Virus record (IMG/VR): IMGVR_UViG_3300025118_000012
Coordinates: 1-63,205 of that record
DNA from: a virus
Length of the DNA: 63,205 nucleotides
Reading direction: 5' to 3' (one strand)
The first letter of the stretch is position 1, and every line of letters begins with the position of its first letter. The notes beneath the pieces were generated by a model. It searched no databases and was not told the origin of the DNA. It saw only the letters and a program-made list of their open reading frames with translations. This document shows positions 4,666-58,443 of the stretch, piece after piece. Made by a program: the position numbers and the translations under genes.

Positions 4666-5250
4666 ATGACTATTCGAGGCGACTCACAAGAATACGACCT
4701 TCTAAAAAAATGGACAGAGACTTTACCTTTTTATGAAGAACCAAAGGTAGTAACCACCGTAGAGATTGGTGTGCGTGAAGGATTGGGCTCTAAGGTTATT
4801 ATGTTAGCCATTAAAGAAAGATTAGGTGGTGCTAAAATACCTTATAAACATATAGGCATAGATCAATATGCTAATTTAAAATATCAACATTATGATAATT
4901 CACCAGCACATACAGCCGACTACACAGATGAAATGAGAAAAACAATGGTAGAAGATTTTAAAGACCACCCGGAGTTTATGTTTTATCACATGAAAGATAT
5001 TGATTTTATGAATACTTTTGTTGAAACAGGTTTTAAAGTTTATGATTTAGTTCATTTTGATGGGCCTCATATGACTAAAGATGTTTTAAGAGAAGCAATA
5101 TGGTTTGCAGATAAATCAAGAGTTGGAACAAGATTTATATTTGATGATTATAAAAAATATGAAATGGATCAAATAGCATTAGTACTAACTCATTTTGGAT
5201 TTAAAACAAAAGAAGCAGGAGATCATAAAATTTGTTTGCAAAGGGTGTAA
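4666..5250 (+). CDS. Class I SAM-dependent methyltransferase (Methyltransf_24-like)
   Basis: The product has 194 residues with a Rossmann pattern. The SAM-binding motif I is VEIGVREGLGSKV (about residues 31-43), an acidic end of strand 2 is seen in HIGIDQYA, and YDLVHFDGPHMTKDVL plus TRFIFDDY match motifs IV and V. This resembles the Methyltransf_24 group, which often acts on sugars or small molecules. Its stop overlaps the start of an oxygenase (TAATG at 5248), so the two are likely made together and may act on one target. The substrate cannot be told. A DNA methylase is unlikely because no NPPY or PC motif is visible. Confidence 0.75.
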   Translation: MTIRGDSQEYDLLKKWTETLPFYEEPKVVTTVEIGVREGLGSKVIMLAIKERLGGAKIPYKHIGIDQYANLKYQHYDNSPAHTADYTDEMRKTMVEDFKDHPEFMFYHMKDIDFMNTFVETGFKVYDLVHFDGPHMTKDVLREAIWFADKSRVGTRFIFDDYKKYEMDQIALVLTHFGFKTKEAGDHKICLQRV

Positions 5251-5768
5251 TGAAAGTAATAGATAACTTTCTTGTAAAGGAAGAAGCTGATAAAATAGAA
5301 AAAGAATTTTTACATCCTTTCTTTCCATGGTATTACGCTAAATCTATAAATCCAGACTTTGACCATCTACAGGAAAAACCAAATCATCAATTTCAGTTTG
5401 TTCATTCTTTCTTTTTTGAACATAAAATTCAATCAAATGGTTGGTCGATACTGGAACCTATTATTAATAAATTAAAAATTAAAGCATTAATAAGGGTAAA
5501 AGCTAATTGTATTCCAATGACAGAACAAATAATTACACATGGGTTTCACATTGATTACAAAGACAATCTAACAGCTGTTTATTATATTAATTCAAACAAC
5601 GGCTACACAGAATTTGAAACTGGAGAAAAAGTTGAAAGCATTAAAAACAGAATGATTATCTTTAATTCAAATGTTAAACATAGAGGAACGACTTGTACTG
5701 ATAAACACACCAGAATGAATGTAAATATTAATTTTTATGAACCAAAAGGAGATATGTATGAATATTGA
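5250..5768 (+). CDS. 2OG-Fe(II) oxygenase, NNGYT subfamily copy 1
   Basis: The product has 172 residues from ATG 5250, chosen because it overlaps the preceding stop. The iron site is visible as HID in HGFHIDYKD and a distal His in NVKHRGTT. The Arg in TRMNVNINF is the likely 2-oxoglutarate contact. The family signature between them is YYINSNNGYTEFETGEKV. Two paralogs (57952 and the minus-strand gene at 50991) share the FPWYY-like N-terminus and this signature. These enzymes hydroxylate using 2-oxoglutarate and oxygen. The target is unknown, and the coupled methyltransferase suggests a shared substrate. Confidence 0.82.
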   Translation: MKVIDNFLVKEEADKIEKEFLHPFFPWYYAKSINPDFDHLQEKPNHQFQFVHSFFFEHKIQSNGWSILEPIINKLKIKALIRVKANCIPMTEQIITHGFHIDYKDNLTAVYYINSNNGYTEFETGEKVESIKNRMIIFNSNVKHRGTTCTDKHTRMNVNINFYEPKGDMYEY

Positions 5769-5985
5769 CACGATATCATTAGTTCAGAGACTTCTTAAAA
5801 GAAGACTCGAGCAACTTAAAGAAACCGCTCTATATAGTGTTGACACGATGGATCAACTACAATATGTTAGAGGACAAATCAAATCATTAGAAGATTTGCA
5901 ACAGGAACTAAAAGACCTGCTGAATAAACAGGAGTTTGAAGATGATAATGTCCACGGTGAAACCGAAACGGACTGGAAAACTTGA
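5758..5985 (+). CDS. Small helical protein
   Basis: The product has 75 residues from ATG 5758, preceded by AAGGAGA at 5746. It overlaps the end of the oxygenase gene and the start of the GroES-like gene. It is predicted to be almost wholly helical and coiled-coil (VQRLLKRRLEQLKETAL, then QLQYVRGQIKSLEDLQQELKDLLNKQ). Nothing identifies a function. Such small coiled-coil genes are frequent next to phage capsid genes. Confidence 0.6.
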   Translation: MNIDTISLVQRLLKRRLEQLKETALYSVDTMDQLQYVRGQIKSLEDLQQELKDLLNKQEFEDDNVHGETETDWKT

Positions 5986-6388
5986 AGACTCGTATAAAAG
6001 CGAAGAAGAAGTCAGAACAGTTCTAGATCCAAAAGCGATCGATGATAAGCTATTAGCTAGATTACCAACACCAACAGGTTACAGAATATTAGTGTTACCT
6101 TATGCTGGCCCAAAGAAAACTAAGGGTGGTATTCTTTTATCTGATACAACACAAGAAACAATTCAGATGACTACAGTTTGTGGTCTAATTCTTAAAATGG
6201 GGAATCTTTGTTACAGAGACAAAGAGAAATTTCCGTTAGGACCTTGGTGTAAACTAAACGAATGGGTAATATTTAGTAGGTACGCAGGTTCAAGATTCAA
6301 GATTGAAGGTGGAGAAGTAAGAGTGTTGAATGATGATGAAATTATTTCAACAATCAAAAACCCACGTGAAATTTTGCACCATTTTTAA
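5942..6388 (+). CDS. GroES-like co-chaperonin
   Basis: The product has 148 residues from ATG 5942, with GGAG at 5931. ATG 5948 is an alternative. Residues about 45-145 follow the Cpn10 pattern: GYRILVLPY (first strand), KTKGGILLSDTTQE (start of the mobile loop), TVCGLILKMG, KLNEWVIFSRYAGSRFKIEGGEVRVLNDDEI (closing strands). It would cap the host GroEL chamber, as T4 gp31 does to fold the major capsid protein. About 45 extra N-terminal residues precede the fold. It directly precedes scaffold and capsid genes, which supports a capsid-folding role. I am confident of the family; the role is inferred. Confidence 0.85.
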   Translation: MIMSTVKPKRTGKLEDSYKSEEEVRTVLDPKAIDDKLLARLPTPTGYRILVLPYAGPKKTKGGILLSDTTQETIQMTTVCGLILKMGNLCYRDKEKFPLGPWCKLNEWVIFSRYAGSRFKIEGGEVRVLNDDEIISTIKNPREILHHF

Positions 6389-6397
6389 GGAGGATAT

Positions 6398-12332: not shown

Positions 12333-12863
12333 ATGAAAATAAATAAAATAGTTCAAAGAAAAATTTCCATGGATTATGTTTTGTTTACTGGAAAGATAGA
12401 TATAGACACAAATTATTTTATTGAAAAAATAGATGAACAAATAAAAGGAGACGATAATCTTAATGGTAAAACAAATGTTATTGGTGGAATGACAAATTGG
12501 CATTTTTTTACACAAGATGAAAAATTTTGGACTCCTTTTTTTCCAGTTCAAGACTACATAGATCAAAAAGACTTATTTTCAGGAACAATTTATAAAATTA
12601 AAGAAGTATGGGGTTTATGTAATCCAAAAGGAGCTTATACTAGATTACATAAACATTTTCCTTCAGTATTTGGAGGAGTTATATATTTAAATAGTAGTGA
12701 TCAAAAATTATTTTTTCCTGATATTGGTGAAGAAATTAAACCAGAACCAGGAACGTTTGCAATTTTTAGTGGTTTTTTAAATCATTATACAAACCGAAAC
12801 ACTAATAATGTTCCAAAATATGCGTTAAGTTTAAACGCTTACGCAAACATGATAGGAGAATGA
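12333..12863 (+). CDS. 2OG-Fe(II) oxygenase, HxH (Oxy_5-like) family copy 1
   Basis: The product has 176 residues. The C-terminal half shows the family pattern: WGLCNPKGAYTRLHKHFPS with the metal-binding HKH, FGGVIYLNSS (core strand), then KPEPGTFAIFSGFLNHYT with the distal His, and a final strand ALSLNAYA. Two relatives lie in tandem at 43661 and 44252. It sits between a small membrane protein and the endolysin, one base before the latter. The target is unknown. A non-enzymatic double-stranded beta-helix protein is the alternative. Confidence 0.75.
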   Translation: MKINKIVQRKISMDYVLFTGKIDIDTNYFIEKIDEQIKGDDNLNGKTNVIGGMTNWHFFTQDEKFWTPFFPVQDYIDQKDLFSGTIYKIKEVWGLCNPKGAYTRLHKHFPSVFGGVIYLNSSDQKLFFPDIGEEIKPEPGTFAIFSGFLNHYTNRNTNNVPKYALSLNAYANMIGE

Positions 12864-17454: not shown

Positions 17455-18714
17455 ATGGCATCAACTTATTCAAGTGATATAAAACTAGAACTTATGGCGA
17501 CTGGCGAAAACGCTGGTACATGGGGTGATAAAACAAATACAAATTTAAATCTTTTACAACAAGCAATTGCAGGATATGAAGCAGTAACACTTTCAAGTGG
17601 TGGAACTGTTGCTCTTGCTATGACAGATGGAACATTATCCAATGCTCGTAACCTGGTAATCAAATTTGCAACTGCTTCTATTGCAGCAAGCACAATATGT
17701 ACTATACCAGACAGTATTGAAAAATTTTATATTTTTGATTGTAGTGGTTTAACTAACCCTACAAACTTAACAATTAAAACTGCATCAGGAACTGGATTTA
17801 CTCCAGACGCAGCAAAAATTTATGCTGCATATTCTGATGGAACAAACCTTGTAGAAGTATCTCTTGATACTTTAGGTGGAGCTGTTGGACCTGCACAAAT
17901 TGAAGACGATGCTGTAACTACAGATAAAATTTTAGATGACAATGTAACTTATGCAAAAATGCAAGACACATCTGCTGATAACAGAGTTTTAGGCGCTGCT
18001 ACTGCTGGAACGATTGGAGAAGTTCAAATTGCTACAGATATGATCGCAGACGATGCCGTTGATGCAGACAAACTTGATAACACGACTGTATCTGCAGGAT
18101 CTTACACTTCTGCATCAATTACAGTTGATGCTCAAGGAAGATTAACTGCTGCTTCATCTGGTTCTGCAGGTGGTGGCGGATTTGAACCATTAACTTTTGC
18201 AACAGGTAACGGAACTTATACATCAAGCTCAAACGCATCTTACGTTGCAGCCCTTCTATGGGGTGGCGGTGGCGGAGGAGCAGGAGGCTCACAATGTTGT
18301 GGTGGCGGAACTGGAGGAGGAGGAGGATTTGGTTTCTTCGGTGGCCCAATAACTCACCCTGTATCTTATGCATACACTCTTGGATCTGGAGGAAATAAAG
18401 GTAACGGAAACCCTAACCCAGGACATGGAAATGCGGGGAACGCAGGAAATGGATCTACACTAACAAACATTGGTACATCTAATGGAGGAACTGGTGCAGG
18501 ATCCCATACTAATAACCAAGGTGGACCAGCAGGCAGTACAGGTTCAGCTCCAGGTGCTAAAATGGATATGTCAAACAACTTTAGAAGTTATTTGGTAGGA
18601 TCTTCTTATGGTGCTGGTGGAACTGGTGGAACTTCAATGCCAGGCGGTAGTATGAGTGGTGGAAATGCTGGTCAAGGTGGCGCAATATTCATTCTAGAAA
18701 ATACAGGAGCATAA
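17455..18714 (+). CDS. Tail fibre with polyglycine-rich tip
   Basis: The product has 419 residues. The N-terminus (SDIKLELMATGENAGTWGDK and NTNLNLLQQAIAG) is a fibre leader I recognise from marine phages. The middle holds helical repeats (DDAVTTDKILDDNVTYAKM and DMIADDAVDADKLDN), then VTVDAQGRLTAAS. From about residue 235 the tip is glycine-rich (GGGGGGAGGS, GGGTGGGGG), like the polyglycine-helix adhesins of some T4-type fibres. It likely binds the host receptor. A tip-associated small gene follows by one base. Confidence 0.83.
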   Translation: MASTYSSDIKLELMATGENAGTWGDKTNTNLNLLQQAIAGYEAVTLSSGGTVALAMTDGTLSNARNLVIKFATASIAASTICTIPDSIEKFYIFDCSGLTNPTNLTIKTASGTGFTPDAAKIYAAYSDGTNLVEVSLDTLGGAVGPAQIEDDAVTTDKILDDNVTYAKMQDTSADNRVLGAATAGTIGEVQIATDMIADDAVDADKLDNTTVSAGSYTSASITVDAQGRLTAASSGSAGGGGFEPLTFATGNGTYTSSSNASYVAALLWGGGGGGAGGSQCCGGGTGGGGGFGFFGGPITHPVSYAYTLGSGGNKGNGNPNPGHGNAGNAGNGSTLTNIGTSNGGTGAGSHTNNQGGPAGSTGSAPGAKMDMSNNFRSYLVGSSYGAGGTGGTSMPGGSMSGGNAGQGGAIFILENTGA

Positions 18715-18715: not shown

Positions 18716-19180
18716 ATGGCAAAAGCACTTTTTTCAAAATTTTCATCTGGTGCAGATTCAAACTGCATTGGAATTGTATCTACTTCAGATTGGTTGGATC
18801 CAGCAGAAAGCTTAGTCGATACAGGAGTTACTGAGGTAATAGAAATTTCTGATGTTGATTTTAATAATTATAGAAATGGTACTTCATATATTAATCGTGA
18901 AGATGGTGGAACAATAGTATCTAATTCTGATGCAATCAATAACCAAACACAAGAAGATGCTAAAAAGTATATGGAAGACATGAAAGATTGGCATAAGACT
19001 GTTATGGCTACATGGATTGCAGATGGAAGAACATATAAAATTAGTGAAGCTACAACATGGAATTCTTTTTTAGAAAGTTGGGATACTTCAGCAATAACTT
19101 GGCCTTTAGATAAAACTTTTGAACAGTATTTAGAAAGTATTAGTCAAGACTACGTTAGTCCTTTACAGCTTTGTTTATAA
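18716..19180 (+). CDS. Probable fibre-associated protein
   Basis: The product has 154 residues directly after the fibre gene, the place of fibre assembly chaperones. It is acidic and mixed in structure with an amphipathic centre (DAKKYMEDMKDWHKTVMATW). I recognise no known family. The chaperone role is suggested by position only. Confidence 0.55.
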   Translation: MAKALFSKFSSGADSNCIGIVSTSDWLDPAESLVDTGVTEVIEISDVDFNNYRNGTSYINREDGGTIVSNSDAINNQTQEDAKKYMEDMKDWHKTVMATWIADGRTYKISEATTWNSFLESWDTSAITWPLDKTFEQYLESISQDYVSPLQLCL

Positions 19181-19196: not shown

Positions 19197-19940
19197 ATGT
19201 TTGAACAGAAGATAATTTTTTCAGCAGATCAAGAATTTATTAATCAAAATATAGCTCACCCACAACCTATTAAAGTTAATATACCTAAATGGTATAAAGA
19301 GCTTGACCATACAAAAGAAATACAAACTATTAAAGGTTGTATACCTGTTTTAGATTCATTGACTTCTGGGTATCTCATGCGGATGCCTCAAGATATGGCA
19401 ATCCAACATAATGTAACTAATAAAGAAGGCAAGCAAGATTCTTTTGTAAAATGGGGGTACGAGCCTTTAGGGGCATGGACTGCAGCAAAAGGTTTAAACT
19501 TAAATTTTGATGCTTCTGATACACACAACCCAAGACAGGTTGGTAAGTGTCCTTACCTACAAAAAAATAAAGAATTACCTTTTTATAAAATTATGAATCC
19601 TTGGGTTATAACAACACCCCCAGGTTATTCATGTTTATTTGTACCTCCACTCAATAACCCTGACGATAGGTTTCATATTGTTGCTGGTATAGTTGATACT
19701 GATACATATACAACACACATAAATTTTCCTATGGTAATTAATGGTGATAAATACCCAACATTAGAAACAACCATAAAAGTAAATACACCCATTGTTCAAA
19801 TAATACCCTTTAAGAGAGATAATTGGAAAATGGAAATAAAACCAAGTAAAGTTGATGGACGATGGAAAATGCTTAAGTTGACACAAAGATTAGTTCATAA
19901 ATATAAAAATGCTTTTTGGGCTAAGAAATCATGGAAATAA
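19197..19940 (+). CDS. Unrecognised beta protein, paralog of the 57224 product
   Basis: The product has 247 residues. With the 57224 product it shares an ordered set of short motifs: NIPKWYKEL-like start, GCIPV or CPGI, PW-x(4)-P-x-GY, DRFH or ENRFT, GI(V)-DTDTY, and NTPIVQIIPFKRD against GTPIAQLVLYKKE. The spacing of GY, RF and the final PI-Q strand suggests a beta-barrel, possibly a relative of the DUF6065-type phage proteins. In both places it immediately precedes an oxygenase and overlaps its start, so a joint function is likely. The activity is unknown. Confidence 0.6.
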   Translation: MFEQKIIFSADQEFINQNIAHPQPIKVNIPKWYKELDHTKEIQTIKGCIPVLDSLTSGYLMRMPQDMAIQHNVTNKEGKQDSFVKWGYEPLGAWTAAKGLNLNFDASDTHNPRQVGKCPYLQKNKELPFYKIMNPWVITTPPGYSCLFVPPLNNPDDRFHIVAGIVDTDTYTTHINFPMVINGDKYPTLETTIKVNTPIVQIIPFKRDNWKMEIKPSKVDGRWKMLKLTQRLVHKYKNAFWAKKSWK

Positions 19941-20506
19941 AAGACTACATAAAAATTATTGATAATACTCTTAGACCCGAAACACTTGAAGTAATTATGA
20001 AATATGCAAAAGAGTTAAAATACGAAGAAGCAGAAATAGTAACTCAACAACAGGAAAAACCTTTTGTAGAAAATACTACCAGAAAAACTTTATTAAAACC
20101 TTTATATAATACTTCACAATCTTTAACTGAAGTTCATTGGGCACATGTTTTTAACAAAATATTTAAAGAAGCCATTACGGCATACTTAAATGCATTTAAT
20201 ATACCTAGTAATACAATAGCTAAACTTGAAGGAGTTCAAATTTTAAAATATGAACCCGGTGGATTTTACACATGGCATGTAGACCATGGTATTCATTTAA
20301 ATAGAAAACTAAGTTGTATATTTTATTTAAATGATGAGTACGAAGGAGGTTCAATACAATTTGCATTTCCTGCAAAAAACGAAAGTTTTGAAATTAAACC
20401 TAAAGAAAATAGAATGATTCTTTGGCCATCAAATTTTTTATACCCACACAGGGTAACTCCAGTAGAGAAAGGTAGTAGATATTCAGCGGTATGTTGGGCA
20501 GTATAA
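19931..20506 (+). CDS. 2OG-Fe(II) oxygenase, prolyl-4-hydroxylase-like
   Basis: The product has 191 residues. The double-stranded beta-helix core is complete: VQILKYEPGGFYTWHVDHG (iron ligands His and Asp in HVD), LSCIFYLNDEYEGGSIQF, then MILWPSNFLYPHRVTPVEKGSRYSAVCW with the distal His in PHRV and Arg of SRYS binding 2-oxoglutarate. This is the P4Hc or PiuC-like arrangement, which hydroxylates protein or small substrates. It overlaps both neighbours by 10-16 bases, forming a cassette with two further oxygenases inside the tail module. Confidence 0.9.
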   Translation: MEIKDYIKIIDNTLRPETLEVIMKYAKELKYEEAEIVTQQQEKPFVENTTRKTLLKPLYNTSQSLTEVHWAHVFNKIFKEAITAYLNAFNIPSNTIAKLEGVQILKYEPGGFYTWHVDHGIHLNRKLSCIFYLNDEYEGGSIQFAFPAKNESFEIKPKENRMILWPSNFLYPHRVTPVEKGSRYSAVCWAV

Positions 20507-21075
20507 AAGATTTTAAATATAAGCTTGTAAAAAACTTTTTAACTAAAGAAGAAACAGAGCTATTAAAACAATTTACAATATTATTTCATCAAAGAAATGA
20601 TTCGTCATTTGATACTAAACAATCAATAACTATGGATACAATGGACTACGGAAACCCAGCAACTGATGCATTATTAATTACAAAACGTAAAAAGATGGAA
20701 GAAGAAACAAAACTTAAACTAAACCCAACATATAGTTTTTGGAGAATGTATACAAAATATGCTGTTCTTAAAAAACATAAAGATAGACCATCTTGTGAAA
20801 TATCTTGTACTGTTATGGTAGGTTCTGACAATACTCCTTGGCCCATATACATGGCTGGCACACTAATAGAAATGCAGCCTGGTGATGCAGCTATATATTT
20901 GGGTTGCGATGTAGAACATTGGCGAGAAGAGTTTCAAGGTGATTGGCATAGTCAAATTTTTTTACATTACGTAGATGCAAACGGACCTTTTAAAGATTAT
21001 CAAAATGATCAAAGAGAAATAACTGAAACAGGATTCGAAAATAGACTAAATGCAAAACTTCCCGACAGAATATAA
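20491..21075 (+). CDS. 2OG-Fe(II) oxygenase-like protein
   Basis: The product has 194 residues. The candidate iron site is HKD in KHKDRPSCEISCTVMVG plus the His in GCDVEHWREEF. GDWHSQIFLHYVD forms the last strand. MQPGDAAIYLG is the usual turn before the distal His. The usual C-terminal RY(S/A) is replaced by WHSQ, so cofactor binding may differ. The 16-base and 26-base overlaps with its neighbours place it in the same cassette. It may be active on a different substrate or be a degenerate partner. Confidence 0.75.
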   Translation: MLGSIKDFKYKLVKNFLTKEETELLKQFTILFHQRNDSSFDTKQSITMDTMDYGNPATDALLITKRKKMEEETKLKLNPTYSFWRMYTKYAVLKKHKDRPSCEISCTVMVGSDNTPWPIYMAGTLIEMQPGDAAIYLGCDVEHWREEFQGDWHSQIFLHYVDANGPFKDYQNDQREITETGFENRLNAKLPDRI

Positions 21076-21700
21076 CCACAAGATTACAGATCTTATTCAC
21101 ATACAAAAAGAGTTTGTTGGTGTTCCTTTATGTAAAATGTTTATTGAAGCATTTAACAAATTCCCCCAGCTACAGACTAGAGAACAAAGCTATAAGTATG
21201 ATGAAAAGAAAATTGTGTGGGATAATTATAAGTGCTTAAGTTTATCCGAACATCATAAAAAAGACGAAGTATTACAAAATGTTTTTAAAATAGCAGTTGA
21301 TATGGTTTCCCATGTATTAAAAAATTATGTTGAATACATAAGAAAAGAAATTTCTCCTACGTTTACAGATATGCATATAAGCCAAACAGATAATATTAGA
21401 ATATTAGAGTATGCAGAAGGCACTCAAATAAAAGATCATTCTGACATGACTAAACAAATCAGAGGTTCTCTCTCTATTAATTTAAACGAAGACTATGAAG
21501 GGGGTGATTTTAGATTCTTTAACGGAAGACATAAGGTTAAATTAGGTACGGGAGATACTATGCTTTTTCCTGCTGAACCTATATGGATACATGGAACAGA
21601 AAAAATTACAAAAGGAACCCGATATGCCATAAATTGTTTTTTGACTTTATCGGATGACAAGATACAACAAATGAAAGAGAAAGGATTTTATGAGATTTAA
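21050..21700 (+). CDS. 2OG-Fe(II) oxygenase, prolyl-4-hydroxylase-like
   Basis: The product has 216 residues. The core shows IRILEYAEGTQIKDHSDMT with HSD iron ligands, GSLSINLNEDYEGGDFRF, KVKLGTGDTMLFPAEPIWIHGTEKITKGTRYAINC with the distal His and the Arg-Tyr pair. The first about 110 residues form a helical N-terminal region. It ends the three-gene oxygenase cassette and overlaps the next small gene by 11 bases. It is similar in fold to the 19931 product but not a near duplicate. Confidence 0.87.
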   Translation: MQNFPTEYNHKITDLIHIQKEFVGVPLCKMFIEAFNKFPQLQTREQSYKYDEKKIVWDNYKCLSLSEHHKKDEVLQNVFKIAVDMVSHVLKNYVEYIRKEISPTFTDMHISQTDNIRILEYAEGTQIKDHSDMTKQIRGSLSINLNEDYEGGDFRFFNGRHKVKLGTGDTMLFPAEPIWIHGTEKITKGTRYAINCFLTLSDDKIQQMKEKGFYEI

Positions 21701-21940: not shown

Positions 21941-24112
21941 ATGCCGTTAACAAGTGTAAATATAAGACCAGGATTTAATAAACAAGTCACAGAAGCAGGA
22001 GCTGAAGGTCAGTGGACTGATGGTGATAATGTTAGATTTAGATATGGTTTACCAGAAAAGATAGGCGGTTGGGAGCAAATTACTTCTAATACACTTGTTG
22101 GTGCAGCAAGAGATCAACACATTTGGGCAGATTTAGATGGTAGGTCTTATGCAGCAATAGGAACACATAAAGGATTGTTTATTTATTACGGAGGTGTAAT
22201 GTATGACATTACTCCTTTAGCGACTGCGGTTACAGGTGCAACTTTTACGATAGCATCAACTTCTGCTCCTCAAACAATAACCGTAAACAAAGCATCACAT
22301 GGATTGGTAGCAGGCGATCTTTTTACTTTTACATCGGTCACACCACCAACTGGATCGGGTTATACTGTTTCTCAACTAGAAGCAAATCCTTTTGAAGTTT
22401 TAACTGCAAGTACTAACACCTTCACTATACAATTTGCAAGTGCTGCTTCAGGAACAACATCGGCCACCGGATCAGCGACAATTAATCCGTATGTTGGTTT
22501 TGGACCACTTACTCAAAGTTTTGGATATGGTTTTGGTACTGGATTATTTGGAGGAACTGTAAGTGGAGCAATCACAACGACTCTAAACGGAGCCATTACA
22601 GGTACAACCGGAGGTAACAATGCATCTGCTACTAATATTACTTTAACGTCTGCTAGTGGACTTCCTTCTTCTGGAACGGTCTTAATAGGAAGTGAACTTA
22701 TAACTTATAGTTCGATAAGCACTAATGATATTATAATTGCATCGAGAGGAGCTTTAGGAACCACTGCGACCACTCATTTAAATTCTGCGACAGTAACAGA
22801 TGCATCAAATTTTATAGGATGGAACCAAGCAACTACATCTTCTACAGTGGTACTAGATCCTGCATCATGGTCTATAGATAATTTTGGCCAACAATTAATA
22901 GCAACAAACAAAAATGGTACAAGTTTTCAATGGAATCCAATAGCTTCAAGCACAAATGCTTTATCAACTAGAGCTACAGCTATATCTGGAGCACCAACTA
23001 AAACAGTCCAAGCGATTGTATCAGAAAGAGATCGACACTTAATAATGTTAGGAACTGAAACAACCATAGGAGATACTTCCACTCAAGATAAATTATTCAT
23101 AAGATTCTCAGACCAGGAAACCACAGGAACTTACGCACCAACATCGACTAACACAGCAGGTACTTTTAGACTGGACTCTGGAACAAAAATAGTTGGAGCT
23201 GCAAAAGGAAAAGATTACATTTTAATTATTACTGATAATGCTGCTTACATAATGCAGTTTGTAGGACCACCTTTTACATTTTCAATTAAACAAGTTGGAT
23301 CTAACTGTGGAGCTATAGGACAACATGCAATATGCTTCGTTAATGGCTCGGTATACTGGATGGGACAATCCGGTGGGTTTTTCAAGTTTGATGGAACAGT
23401 TAAATCACTTCCTTGTTTGGTTGAGGATTTTGTATTTACAAACGGAGGAAATAATCTTGGTTTAAATTATACAGCAGGGGAACTAACATATGCAGGTATA
23501 AACAATCTATACTCTGAAATTAATTGGTTTTATGCAAAAAATGGTTCGACACTAATAGATAGAGTAGTTACATATAATTATAATGAAAATGTTTGGACAA
23601 CCGGATCATTAAATAGAACGACTTATGCTGATGCAACTTTATTTGAACACCCCTATGCAACAGAATTTATTTCATCAGGAACTCCTAATTTTCCAACAAT
23701 TAATGGTGTTACAGCTGCTAATGGAGCAACTACTTACTATGCTCATGAAGAAGGAACCAATCAAGTAAGTGCTTCTGGAACGTCCTCAGCTATAACCTCT
23801 TTCATACAATCCGGTGATTTTGATTTAGATATTGAAGGTAATGGACAGTATTTTATGAGTATGAGAAGATTTGTGCCAGACTTTAAAATCCTTACAGGAG
23901 ATGCTAAGATATCAATATTATTAAAAGATTTCCCTGTGGACACCGAGGTATCATCTCCACTCGGACCTTTTACTATATCTAGTTCAACGAAAAAAATTGA
24001 CACAAGAGCTAGAGCACGGTTTGCAAGTTTAAAAGTAGAGAATACTTCTATTAACCAAAGTTGGCGTTATGGAACATTTAGAGCTGACACACAACCAGAT
24101 GGTATGAGATAA
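21941..24112 (+). CDS. Tail nozzle or hub protein (P22 gp10-like)
   Basis: The product has 723 residues. The start (VNIRPGFNKQVTEAGAEGQWTDGDNVRFRYGLPEKIGGW) is the signature of podovirus DNA-stabilisation or nozzle proteins. The rest is beta-rich and propeller-like (AAIGTHKGLFIYYGG, LIMLGTE, YWMGQSGGFFKFDGTVKSLPC) with inserted Thr/Ser-rich domains at about residues 90-290. In P22-like particles such a hexamer seals the portal channel. Placement after adaptors and fibres supports this. Confidence 0.8.
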   Translation: MPLTSVNIRPGFNKQVTEAGAEGQWTDGDNVRFRYGLPEKIGGWEQITSNTLVGAARDQHIWADLDGRSYAAIGTHKGLFIYYGGVMYDITPLATAVTGATFTIASTSAPQTITVNKASHGLVAGDLFTFTSVTPPTGSGYTVSQLEANPFEVLTASTNTFTIQFASAASGTTSATGSATINPYVGFGPLTQSFGYGFGTGLFGGTVSGAITTTLNGAITGTTGGNNASATNITLTSASGLPSSGTVLIGSELITYSSISTNDIIIASRGALGTTATTHLNSATVTDASNFIGWNQATTSSTVVLDPASWSIDNFGQQLIATNKNGTSFQWNPIASSTNALSTRATAISGAPTKTVQAIVSERDRHLIMLGTETTIGDTSTQDKLFIRFSDQETTGTYAPTSTNTAGTFRLDSGTKIVGAAKGKDYILIITDNAAYIMQFVGPPFTFSIKQVGSNCGAIGQHAICFVNGSVYWMGQSGGFFKFDGTVKSLPCLVEDFVFTNGGNNLGLNYTAGELTYAGINNLYSEINWFYAKNGSTLIDRVVTYNYNENVWTTGSLNRTTYADATLFEHPYATEFISSGTPNFPTINGVTAANGATTYYAHEEGTNQVSASGTSSAITSFIQSGDFDLDIEGNGQYFMSMRRFVPDFKILTGDAKISILLKDFPVDTEVSSPLGPFTISSSTKKIDTRARARFASLKVENTSINQSWRYGTFRADTQPDGMR

Positions 24113-25615: not shown

Positions 25616-25736
25616 ACAAAAATTTACGCATTTTGTACCTAGACCTAAACCCAAGAAAAGAATAAGATGCCACAAAAAAAAACTTTCCAAAGAAGAAAAA
25701 AGAGACTATAAAAAATATAATCGACAAGGGCGTTAA
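25608..25736 (+). CDS. Tiny basic protein (42 residues)
   Basis: The product is almost all basic (FVPRPKPKKRIRCHKKKL and YKKYNRQGR). It overlaps both neighbours (8 bases upstream, TAATG downstream). I associate this form with a conserved small protein of marine podoviruses. The charge suggests nucleic acid or internal virion binding. The function is unknown. Confidence 0.65.
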   Translation: MARQKFTHFVPRPKPKKRIRCHKKKLSKEEKRDYKKYNRQGR

Positions 25737-26281
25737 TGGATTTACAAGACATTGCTAAAAAAGTAAAAAAAATTCAGGTGCCCCTGAAGGAGCAAGATAT
25801 CTTAGACTTTTTAAAAATAACTAGGAGATGGCAATATAGAAATACTTGGGGCCACCCATCAATAGAAATGATAGATTCAATTGGAAGAAGGCAGTCTGAA
25901 AGATTTTTTGATATAAAAGGAGAGCTTATTTATGATATTTGGAAACAATATTACGATAAAGGATTTACCTTTATTTTAACTAATATTTTAGATTTAACAA
26001 AAGAACTTCGAGAAATTGACCAATTAACAAGGGATCAAACTGGTTGGCATACATGGGGTAATTTTTATTTTTCTAAACCTGGAAGACTAGCTAGTTTTGG
26101 GTTACATGAACATGATTATGCTGTTATAGTAAAACAAATTTATGGTAACTCTCATTGGCTGGTTGGGGATAAAAAATTTATCTTAAAACCAGATGAAGTT
26201 TGTTTTATACCAGAAAAAACAAAACACATGGTGTATAATAAAAGTGAAAATAAATTATCACTAACTATAAACTTAGAATAA
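25736..26281 (+). CDS. Cupin or JmjC-like oxygenase candidate
   Basis: The product has 181 residues. A helical first half leads to a cupin-like core: FGLHEHDYAVIVKQIYG with HEHD as metal ligands, SHWLVGDKKFILKPDEVCFIPEKTKHMVYN with the distal His. The pattern H-x-H-D...H fits metal-dependent cupins, including JmjC-type hydroxylases, though cofactor residues cannot be confirmed. It starts a cassette with a small gene and two glycosyltransferases (26292-28319), suggesting hydroxylation or sugar modification of a common target. A non-enzymatic cupin is possible. Confidence 0.6.
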   Translation: MDLQDIAKKVKKIQVPLKEQDILDFLKITRRWQYRNTWGHPSIEMIDSIGRRQSERFFDIKGELIYDIWKQYYDKGFTFILTNILDLTKELREIDQLTRDQTGWHTWGNFYFSKPGRLASFGLHEHDYAVIVKQIYGNSHWLVGDKKFILKPDEVCFIPEKTKHMVYNKSENKLSLTINLE

Positions 26282-43426: not shown

Positions 43427-43664
43427 AGATATGTTTAATGATGCCTTCCCGCAGGAGAAGCAGGTGGGAGGAAGCCACTATAAACATTTTACAATTCAAC
43501 CATACGAATTTATTTCGAAAAACAATCTTAGTTTTTTTCAAGGAAACGTTGTAAAATATGTTTGTAGATATATTTACAAAAATAAAATAGAAGATTTAGA
43601 AAAGATAAAACATTATTGTGATCTTGAAATTTTAAAAATGAAGGATGAGAAAAAAAATAAATGA
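43416..43664 (+). CDS. DUF3310 protein
   Basis: The product has 82 residues from ATG 43416. It carries the DUF3310 pattern: QVGGSHYKHFTIQPYEFISKNNLSFFQGNVVKYVCRY, then KIEDLEKIKHYCDLEI. These small phage proteins are often beside nucleotide or replication genes. Some are labelled as nucleotide kinases, without an experimental basis known to me. It overlaps the helicase and the next gene slightly. Confidence 0.88.
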   Translation: MTNKDMFNDAFPQEKQVGGSHYKHFTIQPYEFISKNNLSFFQGNVVKYVCRYIYKNKIEDLEKIKHYCDLEILKMKDEKKNK

Positions 43665-44248
43665 TATTTGAATTTAATGTACCCATGCCAAAATTGGCAC
43701 AGCTTTTAAATATTGCAGATGCTGAGCAAACACCTATGAATGAAAGACTTGCAGGTAATATTAGAAAAGAAATCGATTTAAGTAAGTATACATATCTTCT
43801 TGAAAATTTTTTAAAAAATAAAATTGCAGAACACAAACCTTTAGAGGAAAGAGTTTACTCATACAATTGGAATGACACAAAAAAGGATATTCGTTTAAGA
43901 GAATTATGGGTTAATTACCAAGCTAAACATGAGTTTAATCCAATCCACAATCACGCAGGTATTGTTAGTTTTGTAATTTTTGGACGAATACCTTACTGGA
44001 TTAAAGACGAACATAAGGTAAGCCCAGGCGTAAAAGCTAGAAAAAATAAGTCTGGTGTTTTGCAGTTTATTAAATTATCGAATGATTTTAAAGAACCAAT
44101 TGATACAATTGATTGTTTTGCTGACGCTGGTTGGGTTGGTAAAGGTCTTTTGTTTTTGTCAAATGTAAATCATTGTGTTTATCCTTTTTATTCAAGTGAT
44201 GATTATCGTGTAACTTTTTCAGGAAATTTTTATTATAGTGATAAGTAA
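43661..44248 (+). CDS. 2OG-Fe(II) oxygenase-like, HxH family copy 2
   Basis: The product has 195 residues. The core reads LRELWVNYQAKHEFNPIHNHAGIVSFVIFG, with HNH as metal ligands, then KGLLFLSNVNHCVYPFYSSDDYRVTFSGNFYY with the distal His in NHCV and Arg in YRVTF. It forms a tandem pair with the next gene, which has equal length but low identity. They lie inside the replication operon directly before PolA, which makes a DNA or nucleotide target possible. The iron ligand set is HxH rather than HxD. Confidence 0.75.
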   Translation: MIFEFNVPMPKLAQLLNIADAEQTPMNERLAGNIRKEIDLSKYTYLLENFLKNKIAEHKPLEERVYSYNWNDTKKDIRLRELWVNYQAKHEFNPIHNHAGIVSFVIFGRIPYWIKDEHKVSPGVKARKNKSGVLQFIKLSNDFKEPIDTIDCFADAGWVGKGLLFLSNVNHCVYPFYSSDDYRVTFSGNFYYSDK

Positions 44249-44251: not shown

Positions 44252-44839
44252 ATGCCAGATGCAATTATAAAACCTTTTGGTCCATGTTTAGTGGAAACGT
44301 CTGTAGAAGAAGACAAAGTAGAAAAAATAAAAGAATTTTGTGAAAAAAACAAAAATTTAAATATAAGAGATAAGTTAGCTGGACATTTAGATCATGAATA
44401 TGAAATTAATGCAACTAAGTTGCAAGAAATAATTCAATTTAATGTGGATCAATATAAAGTAATATTAAATCATTATTATGGATACAATGAACAAAGAAAT
44501 TTAACTATATCAGTAGCATGGGTAAATTATATGCAAAGTGGAGATTTTAATCCTTTACATACACACTCTGACTGCAATTTTTCAGGAGTTATATATTTAA
44601 GTGTGCCGAAAGAATTAGAGAAAGAAGCTGAAGCAAGTGTTGCTAAGGGTATAAAACCTGGTCAAATAGAATTTACAGTAGGAACAAAAGTTCCAAATTA
44701 TATTACAAGCCACCAATTTTTTCCTAAAAAGGGTTCTTTATATATTTTTCCTCATAACATATTACATATGGTGTGCCCTTTTAAATCTAATGTTGAAAGA
44801 GTATCCGTAGCTTTTAATCTACTATGGAGTAATGAATGA
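44252..44839 (+). CDS. 2OG-Fe(II) oxygenase, HxH (Oxy_5-like) family copy 3
   Basis: The product has 195 residues. AWVNYMQSGDFNPLHTHSDCNFSGVIYLSVP shows the HTH metal site and core strand, QFFPKKGSLYIFPHNILHMVCPF the distal His, and ERVSVAFNLLW the Arg and last strand. This is the best match of the three to the 2OG-FeII_Oxy_5 pattern. It overlaps the PolA gene by 4 bases (ATGA). The relationship to the 43661 product suggests an old duplication and divergence. The target is unknown. Confidence 0.82.
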   Translation: MPDAIIKPFGPCLVETSVEEDKVEKIKEFCEKNKNLNIRDKLAGHLDHEYEINATKLQEIIQFNVDQYKVILNHYYGYNEQRNLTISVAWVNYMQSGDFNPLHTHSDCNFSGVIYLSVPKELEKEAEASVAKGIKPGQIEFTVGTKVPNYITSHQFFPKKGSLYIFPHNILHMVCPFKSNVERVSVAFNLLWSNE

Positions 44840-50990: not shown

Positions 50991-51518
50991 TTAATTTGTA
51001 TAGTTGATGTTTAGGACTATCCTACATTTACTGTCTGTGGTATTTGTGCCACAATGTTTCATCTGAGAGTTGAAGGTAATTAATCTATTGGCTTTTGAGT
51101 ATATTTTTGTGCCATCTTCAAATTTTGTATACCCATTATTGGTATTTATATAAAAAGCTGAGGTTTTGCAGTCATCTGGGACATCAACATGTAGATCTGA
51201 TTCATGTAATTTAGCTGAACCAGTAGTCATATTAAGCTTTAATCTATATAATAGTTTGACATTTAATTTTTGCAAAATTGGCTTAACAATATCAAAATAT
51301 CTAGACGCTATTTCTTTATCATCGTAGGTTTTGAATACATGTGTAAATTGGAATGATTCTAAAATAGGATCATCCCATTTGGGATCACCATCTTGATTGT
51401 AATTTATATATTTGTTAAAAAACCACGGAAAATGAGCACCTTCTAGGTCTTCAACCACCACATCAAAGATTCTTTTGTCTAAAAAATTGTCCTCCTGAGT
51501 GTATCCAAGTATTTCCAT
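50991..51518 (-). CDS. 2OG-Fe(II) oxygenase, NNGYT subfamily copy 2
   Basis: The product has 175 residues. It shares with the 5250 and 57952 products HFPWFF near the start, FQFTHVF, the iron motif HVD in SDLHVDVPDD, AFYINTNNGYTKFEDGTKI, and FNSQMKHCGTNTTD with CRIVLNINY. It stands alone on the minus strand, upstream of the iteron region, which is unlike the other two. Its leader (51519-51540) touches the repeat array, so it could be regulated from there. Confidence 0.8.
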   Translation of the reverse strand: MEILGYTQEDNFLDKRIFDVVVEDLEGAHFPWFFNKYINYNQDGDPKWDDPILESFQFTHVFKTYDDKEIASRYFDIVKPILQKLNVKLLYRLKLNMTTGSAKLHESDLHVDVPDDCKTSAFYINTNNGYTKFEDGTKIYSKANRLITFNSQMKHCGTNTTDSKCRIVLNINYTN

Positions 51519-54515: not shown

Positions 54516-54605
54516 ATGTCTGGCCTGTAACGCTGGCACATTAACAAGTCGCCTATGTAACAAACGAAAGGGTGGTGCAGGCTTAACTAACAAAAGGAGG
54601 AAAAG

Positions 54606-54791
54606 ATGAAGAATAAAGAATATCAAAAAGAGTTAGATGAAGCCATTCAGGAAACGGTACCACATAATGATATTGCGGAAGCTAACAACATACCACAAGC
54701 TGGTAAGGTTTATGCGTTAACCGGTGGCACCGGATCCAAATGCATTGCCAATGGAAATACATGGAAAGAGTCGGAGGTAAAAGATGGCTAG
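54606..54791 (+). CDS. Small acidic protein
   Basis: The product has 61 residues, with AAAGGAGG upstream and a good promoter at 54487. It contains KVYALTGGTGSKCIANGNTW, a Gly-rich segment without a known family. It overlaps the next gene by 8 bases. The function is unknown. Confidence 0.55.
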   Translation: MKNKEYQKELDEAIQETVPHNDIAEANNIPQAGKVYALTGGTGSKCIANGNTWKESEVKDG

Positions 54792-57038: not shown

Positions 57039-57054
57039 TTAATCATACATAGAA

Positions 57055-57140: not shown

Positions 57141-57170
57141 AGGATCACGTTAAAAGACGTGGCTTTTCCC

Positions 57171-57181
57171 CTCGAAGAGGT
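57171..57181 (+). repeat. Right flanking repeat of the GC-rich island
   Basis: CTCGAAGAGGT, identical to 53661-53671. It marks the point after which the sequence returns to the AT-rich late operon beginning at 57224. Confidence 0.45.
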
Positions 57182-57223
57182 TTACAAAGCAAGATATACA
57201 AATATACTAGGGTCCCAAACGGT

Positions 57224-57955
57224 ATGAATTTTAAAATAAAAAATTTTTCTAAAAAATTAACGTTTTATAGTTTAATTGAAGGTATTGAATATATAATGCC
57301 TATTATACCCAGTAAAGATTACAAGCACCCTTGGTTACAAAAAGCCATTGTAAATATTAAAAAAGATCAAAGTGTTCTAAGATGCCCAGGTATACTTAAA
57401 ATTAGAAATGAAGGTTGGATTGTAAGAGCATGGCAAGACATTAAAATTAAGGTTGAAGGCTCTGAATTCTCTTGGACCACACCTTTAGATCAACGAGAAC
57501 TATACACACATTTACCAGCAGATGCTTTAGGGTGGCATGACGAATCACGATTATTTGATTATTTTGAAAATTGGCCAAAAGATTCTCTATCTAAAATAAT
57601 TAAAATAAATGTACCTTGGTCGGTGGACGTTCCTAAAGGTTATATCTTACATCAGTTCCATCCTGCTTATTTAGATGAAAATAGGTTTACTACACTTCCT
57701 GGAATGTATACGTCAGATACAGGTTTAAATACTTTAAATGTTCCAATTATTTTACATATGAATAAAGGTGAAGTTTTAATCAAGGCTGGTACACCAATAG
57801 CACAACTAGTATTATATAAAAAAGAAAGTATACAACATGAAAATGTATTGGCTTGCACAAGTAAAAAATTTTTAAAAAAAGAAAGATTAACTTATTTATT
57901 GTTAAATATGAGATTTAAAAAACTATATAATAAAATAAAGGATTTTTGGAAATGA
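57224..57955 (+). CDS. Unrecognised beta protein, paralog of the 19197 product
   Basis: The product has 243 residues. Shared features with the 19197 protein are listed there. Here they read VPWSVDVPKGYILHQFHPAYLDENRFTTLPGMYTSDTG, NVPIILHMNKGEVLIKAGTPIAQLVLYKKE. It precedes an oxygenase of the NNGYT group and overlaps it by 4 bases (ATGA), whereas the 19197 copy precedes a P4H-type oxygenase. No ribosome site is obvious before ATG 57224. The function is unknown. Confidence 0.6.
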   Translation: MNFKIKNFSKKLTFYSLIEGIEYIMPIIPSKDYKHPWLQKAIVNIKKDQSVLRCPGILKIRNEGWIVRAWQDIKIKVEGSEFSWTTPLDQRELYTHLPADALGWHDESRLFDYFENWPKDSLSKIIKINVPWSVDVPKGYILHQFHPAYLDENRFTTLPGMYTSDTGLNTLNVPIILHMNKGEVLIKAGTPIAQLVLYKKESIQHENVLACTSKKFLKKERLTYLLLNMRFKKLYNKIKDFWK

Positions 57956-58443
57956 GTTATAAAATAGTAGATAACTTTATAGAGGACCCAAAAGTATTTA
58001 ACATTATTACAGAAAAACTTTTTAGTGATGCCTTTCCTTGGTACTATAGTGATAATGTAGCGTACTCAGGAGAAAATAATAAAAGTTTTTATTTTGTGCA
58101 TAATTTTTTTAGAGATGGTAAACAACAAAGTGATTGGATGGATATAATGCACCCGGTGTTAGGAAGACTACAGTTCAACCACTTGTTACATATACGTGCA
58201 AATTGTTATACTAATGTGACTGAACCTCTTACGCACGACTATCACGTTGATAGACATACTCCGCATAAGGTTGCTTTGTATAGTCTTAATGACAACAATG
58301 GGTACACTCAATTTGAGAAAACAGAAGAGAAGGTTCAGTCTGTTAGAAACAGATTATTATTGTTTGATGGAGAGGATACACATAGAAGTACTACACAAAC
58401 AGATGAAAATTTAAGGATTAATATAAATATTAACTATGTATAA
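57952..58443 (+). CDS. 2OG-Fe(II) oxygenase, NNGYT subfamily copy 3
   Basis: The product has 163 residues from ATG 57952, which overlaps the preceding stop. FPWYYSDNV, FYFVHNFF, HIRANCYTN, then DYHVDRHT with HVD iron ligands, YSLNDNNGYTQFEKTEEKV, FDGEDTHRSTTQTD with the distal His, and RININI with the Arg. It is closest to the 5250 product. Its stop overlaps the large terminase start by 8 bases, so it is made with the packaging motor. The target is unknown. Confidence 0.83.
   Translation: MSYKIVDNFIEDPKVFNIITEKLFSDAFPWYYSDNVAYSGENNKSFYFVHNFFRDGKQQSDWMDIMHPVLGRLQFNHLLHIRANCYTNVTEPLTHDYHVDRHTPHKVALYSLNDNNGYTQFEKTEEKVQSVRNRLLLFDGEDTHRSTTQTDENLRINININYV

What the first reader, a model, noticed from the sequence alone, without database searches (positions are those of the whole stretch)
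5250..58443. Ten oxygenase-like genes in one phage
Nine genes carry recognisable 2OG-Fe(II) patterns (5250, 12333, 19931, 20491, 21050, 43661, 44252, 50991 minus, 57952), and 25736 looks like a cupin-type member. They span all modules: head, lysis, tail, replication and terminase. Single oxygenases are known in marine phages, but this number and spread suggests that oxygenation is central to this phage. Possible targets are virion proteins, host translation factors, cell-surface sugars or DNA bases. Iron and 2-oxoglutarate needs would tie infection to host nutrient state; that last point is inference.
Basis: partly seen in the sequence, partly recalled or inferred. Interest (0 to 1): 0.85.

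Follow-up and report, generated by a model that had tools for sequence, protein, structure and literature searches.

The report
Oxygenase-rich phage with tail-fibre oxygenase module
This ocean virus of bacteria carries nine iron-dependent oxygenase-type genes, three of them packed behind its tail-fibre gene together with a partner protein, which suggests that it may chemically modify its own host-binding fibre; the large number itself is already known in such viruses.

Summary
Nine genes belong to the Fe(II)/2-oxoglutarate (2OG) oxygenase fold and 25736 is cupin-like. The number is not new: relatives carry up to 11, cyanophage S-SCSM1 has 24 (PMC9602691), and eight 2OG types are published for HTVC023P-type pelagiphages (PMC9599517).

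What looks new:
(1) The family labelled "ferrochelatase" (20491, phrog_2954) is a prolyl-hydroxylase-like fold with an HxD...H triad but no usual 2OG-binding Arg. Two published ecological readings use that label.
(2) 20491 lies in a conserved tail-fibre module: fibre, ~150-aa protein, phrog_7084 protein, P4H-like oxygenase, phrog_2954. A fibre homologue was found in 28 of 36 loci; the other 8 have under 2,080 bases upstream. The last two genes are fused in two cyanophages.
(3) The phrog_7084 protein has a dUTPase-like predicted fold of moderate confidence. An oxygenase gene of one of three subfamilies overlaps its end in 28 of 28 usable loci, and twice in this window.

Best mechanism, inferred: oxygenation of the tail fibre during assembly. 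No activity has been shown.

The parts
5250..5768 (+). 2OG-type oxygenase, phrog_274 (labelled 'DNA endonuclease V')
   Evidence: phrog_274 E 7.9e-49; Pfam 2OG-FeII_Oxy_3 25.2 bits, cut-off 27; H100, D102, H144, R155 invariant in the 14 sequences of A4
12333..12863 (+). 2OG-type oxygenase, phrog_81, HxH..H..K
   Evidence: phrog_81 E 5e-18; Pfam 2OG-FeII_Oxy_5 27.5 bits, cut-off 27; HxH and distal His invariant in the 14 sequences of A6
17455..18714 (+). tail fibre with glycine-rich C-terminal part
   Evidence: Gly_rich_2 E 3.9e-4, below cut-off; phrog_31104 E 1.1e-29, phrog_863 'tail fiber assembly' E 1e-4; matches HTVC023P gp69 'putative tail protein'
18716..19180 (+). 154-aa protein of the fibre module, no family match (role inferred from place)
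   Evidence: no PHROG or Pfam match to E 0.001; a gene of similar size follows the fibre in most loci with room for it, but only 12 of 36 match by sequence
19197..19940 (+). phrog_7084 protein, dUTPase-like predicted fold, upstream partner of 19931
   Evidence: phrog_7084 E 1.8e-42; AlphaFold2 pLDDT 69.3, pTM 0.71; 50 of 50 listed rows are dUTPases, Z 8.7-10.0
19931..20506 (+). 2OG oxygenase, prolyl-4-hydroxylase-like; overlaps 19197 by 10 bases
   Evidence: Pfam 2OG-FeII_Oxy_3 E 7.6e-22; phrog_61 E 9e-42; H 56, D 55, distal H 56 and R/K 56 of 56 sequences
20491..21075 (+). atypical 2OG-fold protein, phrog_2954, published as 'ferrochelatase'
   Evidence: H96, D98, H143 invariant in 23 sequences and 45 of 45; AlphaFold2 pLDDT 85.9, pTM 0.82; best PDB matches PHD2, P. 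putida P4H, SnoN
21050..21700 (+). 2OG oxygenase, phrog_3531 C-terminal half type
   Evidence: Pfam 2OG-FeII_Oxy_3 E 2.3e-8; phrog_3531 E 3.8e-16
21941..24112 (+). virion structural protein closing the module
   Evidence: phrog_3287 E 5.5e-88; homologue in 32 of the 36 phrog_2954 loci, 31 downstream on the same strand
25736..26281 (+). cupin-like protein, not counted as a 2OG oxygenase
   Evidence: Cupin_2 23.9 bits (cut-off 27.2), AraC_binding 21.3 (21.1), JmjC_2 20.3 (22); phrog_29157 unknown function E 3.3e-52; weak solved cupin 7zvy E 0.038
43661..44248 (+). 2OG-type oxygenase, phrog_81, HxH..H..R
   Evidence: phrog_81 E 1.1e-18; Pfam 2OG-FeII_Oxy_5 23.2 bits, cut-off 27
44252..44839 (+). 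2OG-type oxygenase, phrog_81, HxH..H..R
   Evidence: Pfam 2OG-FeII_Oxy_5 E 3.2e-18; the profile of its group (A6) finds solved 2rg4 at E 1.8e-20
50991..51518 (-). 2OG-type oxygenase, phrog_274
   Evidence: phrog_274 E 3.4e-45; 40% identical to 5250
57224..57955 (+). second phrog_7084 protein, upstream partner of 57952
   Evidence: phrog_7084 E 5.7e-36; weak Pfam dUTPase E 0.026, 14.7 bits against 22
57952..58443 (+). 2OG-type oxygenase, phrog_274, overlapping 57224 by 4 bases (10 from the TTG start at 57946)
   Evidence: phrog_274 E 3.2e-40; 37% identical to 5250

Best explanation
The window is one genome of the HTVC023P-type pelagiphages that carries nine genes of the Fe(II)/2-oxoglutarate oxygenase fold. 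They are not one pathway. Three of the nine (19931, 20491, 21050) belong to a conserved tail-fibre module: glycine-rich fibre, ~150-aa protein, phrog_7084 protein with a dUTPase-like fold, P4H-like oxygenase, atypical oxygenase, then a virion protein. The likely working (inferred) is that the canonical oxygenase 19931 hydroxylates residues of the fibre, or of another tail protein made beside it, during assembly. The phrog_7084 protein would act as a bound partner that presents the substrate or places the enzyme. The phrog_2954 protein, which keeps iron ligands but lacks the usual 2OG-binding Arg, would act as a second, non-standard subunit. The second phrog_7084 and oxygenase pair (57224/57952, before terminase) would serve another structural protein. 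Supported by computation: folds, motifs, gene order and fusion. Not shown: activity, substrate, complex.
For: A homologue of fibre 17455 was found in 28 of the 36 phrog_2954 loci, in 27 of them upstream on the same strand; the other 8 have under 2,080 bases before the match. A homologue of virion protein 21941 lies in 32 of 36. phrog_7084 is labelled in 29 of 36. An oxygenase gene overlaps the end of phrog_7084 by 8-25 bases (longest-ORF rule) in 28 of 28 usable loci, with three partner subfamilies: 22, 4 and 2 loci. The phrog_2954 domain is fused to a canonical 2OG domain in S-SCSM1 and S-SCSM2R. Genes annotated as tail or fibre lie next to or within about 4 kb of the oxygenase cassette in HTVC023P, Mosig, S-SM1 and S-SCSM1. 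In contig L163, phrog_7084 sits beside a ~154-aa gene and a glycine-rich fibre-like gene with no oxygenase detected. The 19931 profile finds prolyl hydroxylases among solved proteins; the 20491 model matches PHD2 and P. putida P4H.
Against: No substrate is identified, and gene order does not prove one. The only collagen-like run in the window of five or more G-x-y steps is one of five, in 17455 itself. In S-SCSM2R the fused gene lies among glycosyltransferase genes, not fibre genes; in HTVC033P no tail gene is annotated beside the cassette. phrog_7084 is absent from the isolates HTVC023P, HTVC027P, HTVC033P and Mosig and from loci L145, L152 and L154 that have room for it, so the cassette can do without it. 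In two haloviruses and two cyanophages it is not next to an oxygenase, and 13 of 15 loci from cellular genomes show none in the fetched stretch. The phrog_7084 model has only moderate confidence. phrog_2954 and the 19931 family do not link by profile comparison. The 28 loci are largely orthologous, several nearly identical to the window, so they are not independent events.
Confidence: 0.4

Rival explanations
1. Host-metabolism genes: the oxygenases draw down 2-oxoglutarate or alter nitrogen or iron/haem metabolism, with 'ferrochelatase' as an iron partner, as proposed for cyanophages and pelagiphages.
For: Published proposals: PMC3037559 (passages) and PMC9599517 (section 7). Such genes are enriched in seasonal virus groups rich in pelagiphages (PMC11561400, passages). 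Host iron transport genes are upregulated on pelagiphage infection, discussed with HTVC027P's oxygenase (PMC12753301, passages).
Against: The 'ferrochelatase' family is itself an oxygenase fold, so the iron-haem partner falls away. Three of the nine sit inside a structural module. A drain on 2OG does not explain nine diverged active sites.
Confidence: 0.15
2. Nucleotide or DNA modification: the dUTPase-like phrog_7084 protein binds nucleotides and its coupled oxygenase hydroxylates a base or sugar.
For: The phrog_7084 model matches only dUTPases in the 50 listed rows; weak Pfam dUTPase for 57224. It lies near ribonucleotide reductase genes in HRTV-15, HF2 and S-RIM4. DNA hypermodification genes are published for some HTVC023P-type clades (PMC9599517).
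Against: The Asp at the motif-3 position (D167) is Thr in 57224 and His in two cyanophage members; only D169 is invariant (motif recalled). No ribonucleotide reductase or thymidylate synthase is among the 25 Pfam families shown of 31 (six not shown). The module is bound to fibre genes.
Confidence: 0.15
3. Host translation factor or ribosome hydroxylation, as Pseudomonas putida P4H does to EF-Tu.
For: P. putida P4H, solved in complex with EF-Tu (4iw3), is rank 3 for the 20491 model and is found by the 19931 profile (E 8.9e-6).
Against: Does not explain the conserved place inside the tail-fibre module. The fold match is general to prolyl hydroxylases.
Confidence: 0.15
4. Surface or glycan modification: oxygenases and the two glycosyltransferase-like genes (26489, 27405) alter fibre glycans or host receptor sugars.
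For: A group-1 glycosyltransferase and an Anp1-like gene (below cut-off) begin about 5 kb after 21700. In S-SCSM2R the fused oxygenase is followed by three glycosyltransferase genes.
Against: HTVC023P keeps its glycosyltransferase gene about 6 kb from the cassette as well, so the two are neighbours but not one block; whether other loci have one was not tested.
Confidence: 0.12

Closest known systems
HTVC023P-type pelagiphages with eight 2OG-Fe(II) gene types and 'ferrochelatases' (PMC9599517; section 7 read)
   Same: Same phage type: the large terminase is 69% identical to HTVC023P. Same oxygenase and 'ferrochelatase' association.
   Different: That section treats the partner as a true ferrochelatase and does not mention a dUTPase-like partner or a tie to the tail fibre; the rest of the paper was seen only as passages. 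The window carries nine oxygenase-type genes against 4 in HTVC023P by one count.
Cyanophage S-SCSM1 with 24 2OG-Fe(II) genes (PMC9602691; passages)
   Same: Many diverged oxygenases in one phage, some beside tail-fibre genes. My count recovers 23.
   Different: 228.8 kb genome, one per 9.9 kb against 7.0 kb in the window. Its ORF248 fuses the phrog_2954-type and canonical domains.
Pseudomonas putida prolyl-4-hydroxylase and human PHD2
   Same: Fold match of 20491 (Z 15.4 for 4j25, up to 15.2 for PHD2); sequence match of the 19931 profile (E 8.9e-6 and 2e-7).
   Different: Low identity (about 14%). 20491 lacks the usual 2OG-binding Arg.
dUTPase family
   Same: Predicted fold of the phrog_7084 protein (Z 8.7-10.0).
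   Different: No Pfam dUTPase match over the cut-off. The motif-3 Asp is not conserved across the family, and a helical C-terminus is added.
2rg4 and 3bvc, solved uncharacterised proteins of the PF13759 type
   Same: Profile A6 matches them at E 1.8e-20 and 3.2e-20, with the same HxH and distal His.
   Different: Their function is not given in the tool output; family name PF13759 for them is my inference.

Membership tests
Fe(II)/2OG oxygenase superfamily (nine genes) | double-stranded beta-helix fold | tested here: met
   20491 by AlphaFold2 and PDB comparison. phrog_274 and phrog_81 profiles align to the 19931 profile at E 1.6e-9 and 3.1e-7. 19931 and 21050 pass the Pfam cut-off. Only one of the nine was modelled; phrog_2954 against 19931 by profile gave no match.
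Fe(II)/2OG oxygenase superfamily (nine genes) | HxD/E...H iron triad | tested here: inconclusive
   Met in six (5250, 50991, 57952, 19931, 20491, 21050). Not met in the strict form in three (12333, 43661, 44252): His replaces the acid, in 22 of 22 aligned phrog_81 sequences.
Fe(II)/2OG oxygenase superfamily (nine genes) | Arg/Lys about 10-12 residues after the distal His, for 2OG | tested here: inconclusive
   Present in eight (read). Absent from 20491, where Gln is found at +12 in 44 of 45 sequences.
Fe(II)/2OG oxygenase superfamily (nine genes) | 2OG- and Fe(II)-dependent turnover | not testable with these tools
   needs purified protein
Ferrochelatase (label of phrog_2954, gene 20491) | ferrochelatase sequence domain | tested here: not met
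   no ferrochelatase family among Pfam matches to E 1 for 20491
Ferrochelatase (label of phrog_2954, gene 20491) | chelatase alpha/beta fold | tested here: not met
   the confident model is a prolyl-hydroxylase-like beta fold; the chelatase fold itself is recalled
DNA endonuclease V (label of phrog_274: 5250, 50991, 57952) | T4 DenV sequence domain | tested here: not met
   no such family to E 1; Pfam's best for 5250 is 2OG-FeII_Oxy_3 (3.2e-5). P-SSM2 'denV' also matches PF13640, below cut-off (E 0.0014); S-SM1 'denV' matches no Pfam family to E 0.01.
dUTPase (phrog_7084: 19197, 57224) | dUTPase beta fold | tested here: met
   Z 8.7-10.0, 50 of 50 listed rows. Caveats: Foldseek E 1.0e-3 at best, TM-score over the query about 0.3; model pLDDT 69.3; 57224 was not modelled.
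dUTPase (phrog_7084: 19197, 57224) | catalytic motif-3 Asp and C-terminal motif 5 | tested here: not met
   D167 is Thr in 57224 and His in two cyanophage members; no C-terminal glycine-rich motif is seen in the alignments. Motif definitions recalled.
DUF6065 (PF19541) | Pfam gathering score | tested here: inconclusive
   19197 16.4 bits against cut-off 26.6; 6 of 11 members of A3 match at E up to 0.1, best 8.1e-7
HTVC023P-type pelagiphage | shared core genes | tested here: met
   42 of 87 genes match HTVC023P, including capsid 91% and large terminase 69% identity
Cupin (25736) | cupin domain with metal-binding His | tested here: inconclusive
   Cupin_2 and JmjC_2 below their cut-offs, AraC_binding just over its own; HEH...H present by reading

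The most novel reading that the evidence does not exclude
A virion-building oxygenation complex: a dUTPase-fold adaptor (phrog_7084), a canonical prolyl-hydroxylase-like enzyme and an atypical iron protein without the usual 2OG Arg (phrog_2954) act together to hydroxylate the phage's own receptor-binding fibre. I know of no described phage machinery for hydroxylation of tail fibres (searches, seen as listings and passages only), and it would explain a gene family now published as 'ferrochelatase'.
Probability: 0.25. Interest if true: 0.8.

Novelty: new variant of a known kind. Interest (0 to 1): 0.5.

Why it matters
Oxygenases are among the common unexplained genes of marine phages, and since 2010 their role has been guessed at from 2OG or iron metabolism. 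This work removes one support of the iron idea: the 'ferrochelatase' reported always to sit next to an oxygenase is itself an oxygenase-type fold. It also points to a concrete, testable place of action, the tail fibre, and names a partner protein (phrog_7084). If fibres are hydroxylated, host recognition by a widespread group of ocean viruses would depend on iron, oxygen and 2-oxoglutarate in the infected cell.

Tried and rejected
Rejected: 'ten oxygenases in one phage is unprecedented' (PMC9602691). Set aside: 25736 as a 2OG enzyme (cupin-like matches, with a JmjC_2 match below its cut-off). Not found: further 2OG genes in the window (six-frame scan with local profiles; Pfam scan of 59 other genes, of whose 31 families 25 were shown). 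Not found: collagen-like fibre repeats as an obvious prolyl-hydroxylase target (longest run five steps). Rejected: true ferrochelatase and DNA endonuclease V labels.

Led nowhere or weak: profile comparison of phrog_2954 with the 19931 family found no relation by sequence (probability 0.3%), so that link rests on structure and motif. Single-sequence searches of solved structures with 20491 and 5250 gave only chance-like matches. The profile of phrog_7084 found no solved relative by sequence. Pfam found no domain in the N-terminal half of the two fused cyanophage proteins to E 0.01, although the S-SCSM1 authors name pfam05721 in ORF248. The scan of genome contigs for phrog_7084 used a single peptide pattern and so misses relatives. 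No paper with DUF6065 was found. A search for ferrochelatase, phage and misannotation found one unrelated paper.

Rows dropped: L120 (449-base fragment) and L161 (24 residues matched) were left out of the 28-locus count; L100 ends within the following gene, and the pattern test there matched 27 of 28. Repeated ORFs and those over 450 aa were dropped. The alignment used 22 of the 36 loci and that used 18 of the 28, each with window sequences added. In the census, G008 54206-54529 and 54520-54771 may be one broken gene counted twice; only 19 of the 30 records went into it.

Full report
What the window is. It is a single virus record of 63,205 bases with GC 34.8%. A 154-base direct repeat at the two ends (152 identical) suggests a complete genome of about 63.05 kb (inference). 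It belongs with the HTVC023P-type pelagiphages: 42 of 87 genes match HTVC023P by tblastn, including the capsid protein at 91% and the large terminase at 69% identity. Two named phage records match the first 25 kb at DNA level; the rest of the window was not searched that way.

The observation. All ten genes exist. Nine belong to the Fe(II)/2-oxoglutarate (2OG) oxygenase fold, in five groups: phrog_274 (5250, 50991, 57952), phrog_81 (12333, 43661, 44252), phrog_61 (19931), phrog_3531 (21050) and phrog_2954 (20491). Pfam sees only four of them above its cut-off. The link of phrog_274 and phrog_81 to the clear oxygenase family of 19931 was tested by profile-profile comparison: E 1.6e-9 and 3.1e-7. 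The phrog_2954 profile did not link by sequence, so it was tested by structure. A six-frame scan of the window with local profiles found exactly these nine and the two phrog_7084 genes. 25736 is cupin-like; a JmjC_2 match below its cut-off (20.3 against 22 bits) leaves a 2OG role open, and I do not count it.

Active sites. Counts are from local alignments of homologues in the fetched loci plus one window row each. The 19931 group has His 56 and Asp 55 of 56, distal His 56 of 56 and Arg/Lys at +10 in 56 of 56. phrog_274 has H 24, D 25 and distal H 25 of 28, with Arg/Lys at +11 in 22 of 28; the odd rows may be misaligned. The phrog_81 group has HxH in 22 of 22, distal His in 22 of 22 and Arg/Lys at +11 in 20 of 22 (two gaps). 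His stands where the acid should be, and the solved relatives 2rg4 and 3bvc show the same HxH. phrog_2954 has HxD and distal His in 45 of 45, but near the place of the 2OG-binding Arg it has Gln in 44 of 45. So five of the nine are fully standard, three have a three-His set, and one lacks the usual 2OG anchor.

Is the number unusual? I counted places that match phrog_274, 81, 61 or 3531 and merged overlaps. The 19 records gave: window 9 (one per 7.0 kb); IMG/VR relatives G001 11 (5.6 kb), G002 8 (6.2), G008 10 (6.3), G011 10 (8.3), G005 4, G004 0; HTVC023P 4; 023Pt_psg01 4; HTVC027P 3; HTVC033P 3; Mosig 12; DSL-LC04 1; P-SSM2 23; S-SCSM1 23; S-SCSM2R 16; S-SM1 14; S-RIM4 13; Sf-CH8 10. As a check, the published number for S-SCSM1 is 24 (PMC9602691, passages). 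The window is therefore dense per kilobase but matched or exceeded by close relatives, and high absolute counts are in print. Eight 2OG types in this lineage are in print too (PMC9599517, section 7). Proteins with a PHD-like predicted fold were noted as widespread in phages of marine bacteria by the Phold paper (PMC12774648, passages).

The 'ferrochelatase' is an oxygenase fold. Relatives of 20491 are called ferrochelatase in most of the cyanophage and pelagiphage records listed, in PHROGs, in PMC9599517 and in PMC11561400, which names phrog2954 explicitly (passages). No ferrochelatase family matches 20491 to E 1. AlphaFold2 with 23 sequences gives pLDDT 85.9 and pTM 0.82. The best PDB matches are PHD2 and P. 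putida P4H (E 5e-8 to about 1e-6), with Z 15.4 for P4H 4j25 and 15.6 for the epimerase SnoN. In S-SCSM1 (ORF248) and S-SCSM2R the phrog_2954 domain is fused in front of a canonical 2OG domain. The S-SCSM1 authors assign both pfam13640 and pfam05721 to ORF248 (passages); if pfam05721 is the front half (my inference; my own Pfam scan saw nothing there), a hint was in print for one gene. I did not find the general correction. In the same way 'DNA endonuclease V' (phrog_274) has no such Pfam domain, and the P-SSM2 'denV' matches a 2OG family weakly.

The module. Around 36 phrog_2954 loci from IMG/VR the order is strikingly constant: glycine-, serine- and threonine-rich fibre of mostly about 420 aa, a gene of about 150 aa, phrog_7084 (labelled in 29 of 36), 19931-type oxygenase, phrog_2954, often one more oxygenase, then a virion protein. 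A homologue of fibre 17455 is found in 28 of 36, in 27 upstream on the same strand and in L154 on the other strand; the remaining 8 begin under 2,080 bases before the match. The ~150-aa gene is less conserved: 12 of 36 match by sequence. The virion protein 21941 has a homologue in 32 of 36. In named phages, annotated tail or fibre genes lie near the cassette: beside it in HTVC023P, 2 kb away in Mosig, about 4 kb from the first oxygenase of the island in S-SM1, and between oxygenase groups in S-SCSM1. HTVC033P has no such annotation nearby, and S-SCSM2R has the fused gene among glycosyltransferases.

The partner protein. 19197 and 57224 are both phrog_7084, and each overlaps the start of an oxygenase gene (19931; 57952). 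Of 30 IMG/VR loci, two fragments were left out. In the other 28, the next gene overlaps by 8-25 bases (longest ORF, ATG/GTG/TTG) and is an oxygenase (in L100 it is cut by the contig end). Three oxygenase subfamilies serve as partner: 19931 type in 22, phrog_274 type (57952) in 4, and a third type in L159/L160 (Pfam 2OG-FeII_Oxy_3 25.2 bits, just below cut-off). The change of partner is the strongest sign of a functional tie; the loci themselves are mostly orthologous. The predicted fold of 19197 is dUTPase-like: 50 of 50 listed rows, Z 8.7-10.0, with Foldseek E 1.0e-3 at best and moderate model confidence (pLDDT 69.3). The usual dUTPase catalytic Asp is not conserved through the family, so I do not call it a dUTPase. 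Against an obligate tie: in two haloviruses and two cyanophages phrog_7084 is not beside an oxygenase; the nearest found within 5 kb is 2.3 kb away, in S-RIM4. Of 15 loci from cellular genomes only L162, which looks like a phage contig, has the pair, and L168 has an oxygenase 2 kb away. In L163 the family sits beside a ~154-aa gene and a glycine-rich fibre-like gene with no oxygenase detected, which ties it to fibres rather than to oxygenases there.

Mechanism. The best-supported reading is oxygenation of the tail fibre or a neighbouring tail protein during assembly. Gene order, partner change, gene fusion and prolyl-hydroxylase relationship are computed here; substrate, chemistry and complex are inferred. 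The scattered genes (5250, 12333, 43661, 44252, 50991) have no such context and may act elsewhere. Rivals are host metabolism, nucleotide modification, EF-Tu-like targets and surface glycans; none is excluded.

Verdict. Observation confirmed, number already known, interpretation partly supported. The new content is the corrected fold of 'ferrochelatase', the fibre module and the phrog_7084 partner.

Noticed in passing
window 1-154 and 63052-63205: Direct terminal repeat of 154 bases with 152 identical: the contig is probably a complete genome.
   Followed up: partly
window 5250, 50991, 57952; cyanophage records: phrog_274 is labelled 'DNA endonuclease V' in many of the cyanophage records listed, yet carries an oxygenase active site; 258 phage records hold a relative of 5250.
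   Followed up: yes
window 12333, 43661, 44252: All 22 aligned phrog_81 sequences have His in place of the acid of the iron triad; whether three His bind iron here is open.
   Followed up: partly
window 26489-28319: Group-1 glycosyltransferase and Anp1-like gene side by side after the tail block; both have homologues in HTVC023P.
   Followed up: no
window 5936-6388 and the A7 set: GroES-like co-chaperonin (Cpn10) plus Hsp20 and cold-shock domains in one small phage.
   Followed up: no
L163: Two phrog_7084 genes face each other beside a glycine-rich fibre-like gene in a Microbacteriaceae MAG contig, probably a phage.
   Followed up: partly
HRTV-15, HF2 (L084, L087): phrog_7084 is widespread in haloarchaeal tailed viruses; in the two read it lies between ribonucleotide reductase and the tail-fibre or virion protein genes.
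   Followed up: partly
L161: A contig otherwise close to the window matches only the first 24 residues of 57224, so the second phrog_7084 gene may be lost or replaced there.
   Followed up: no
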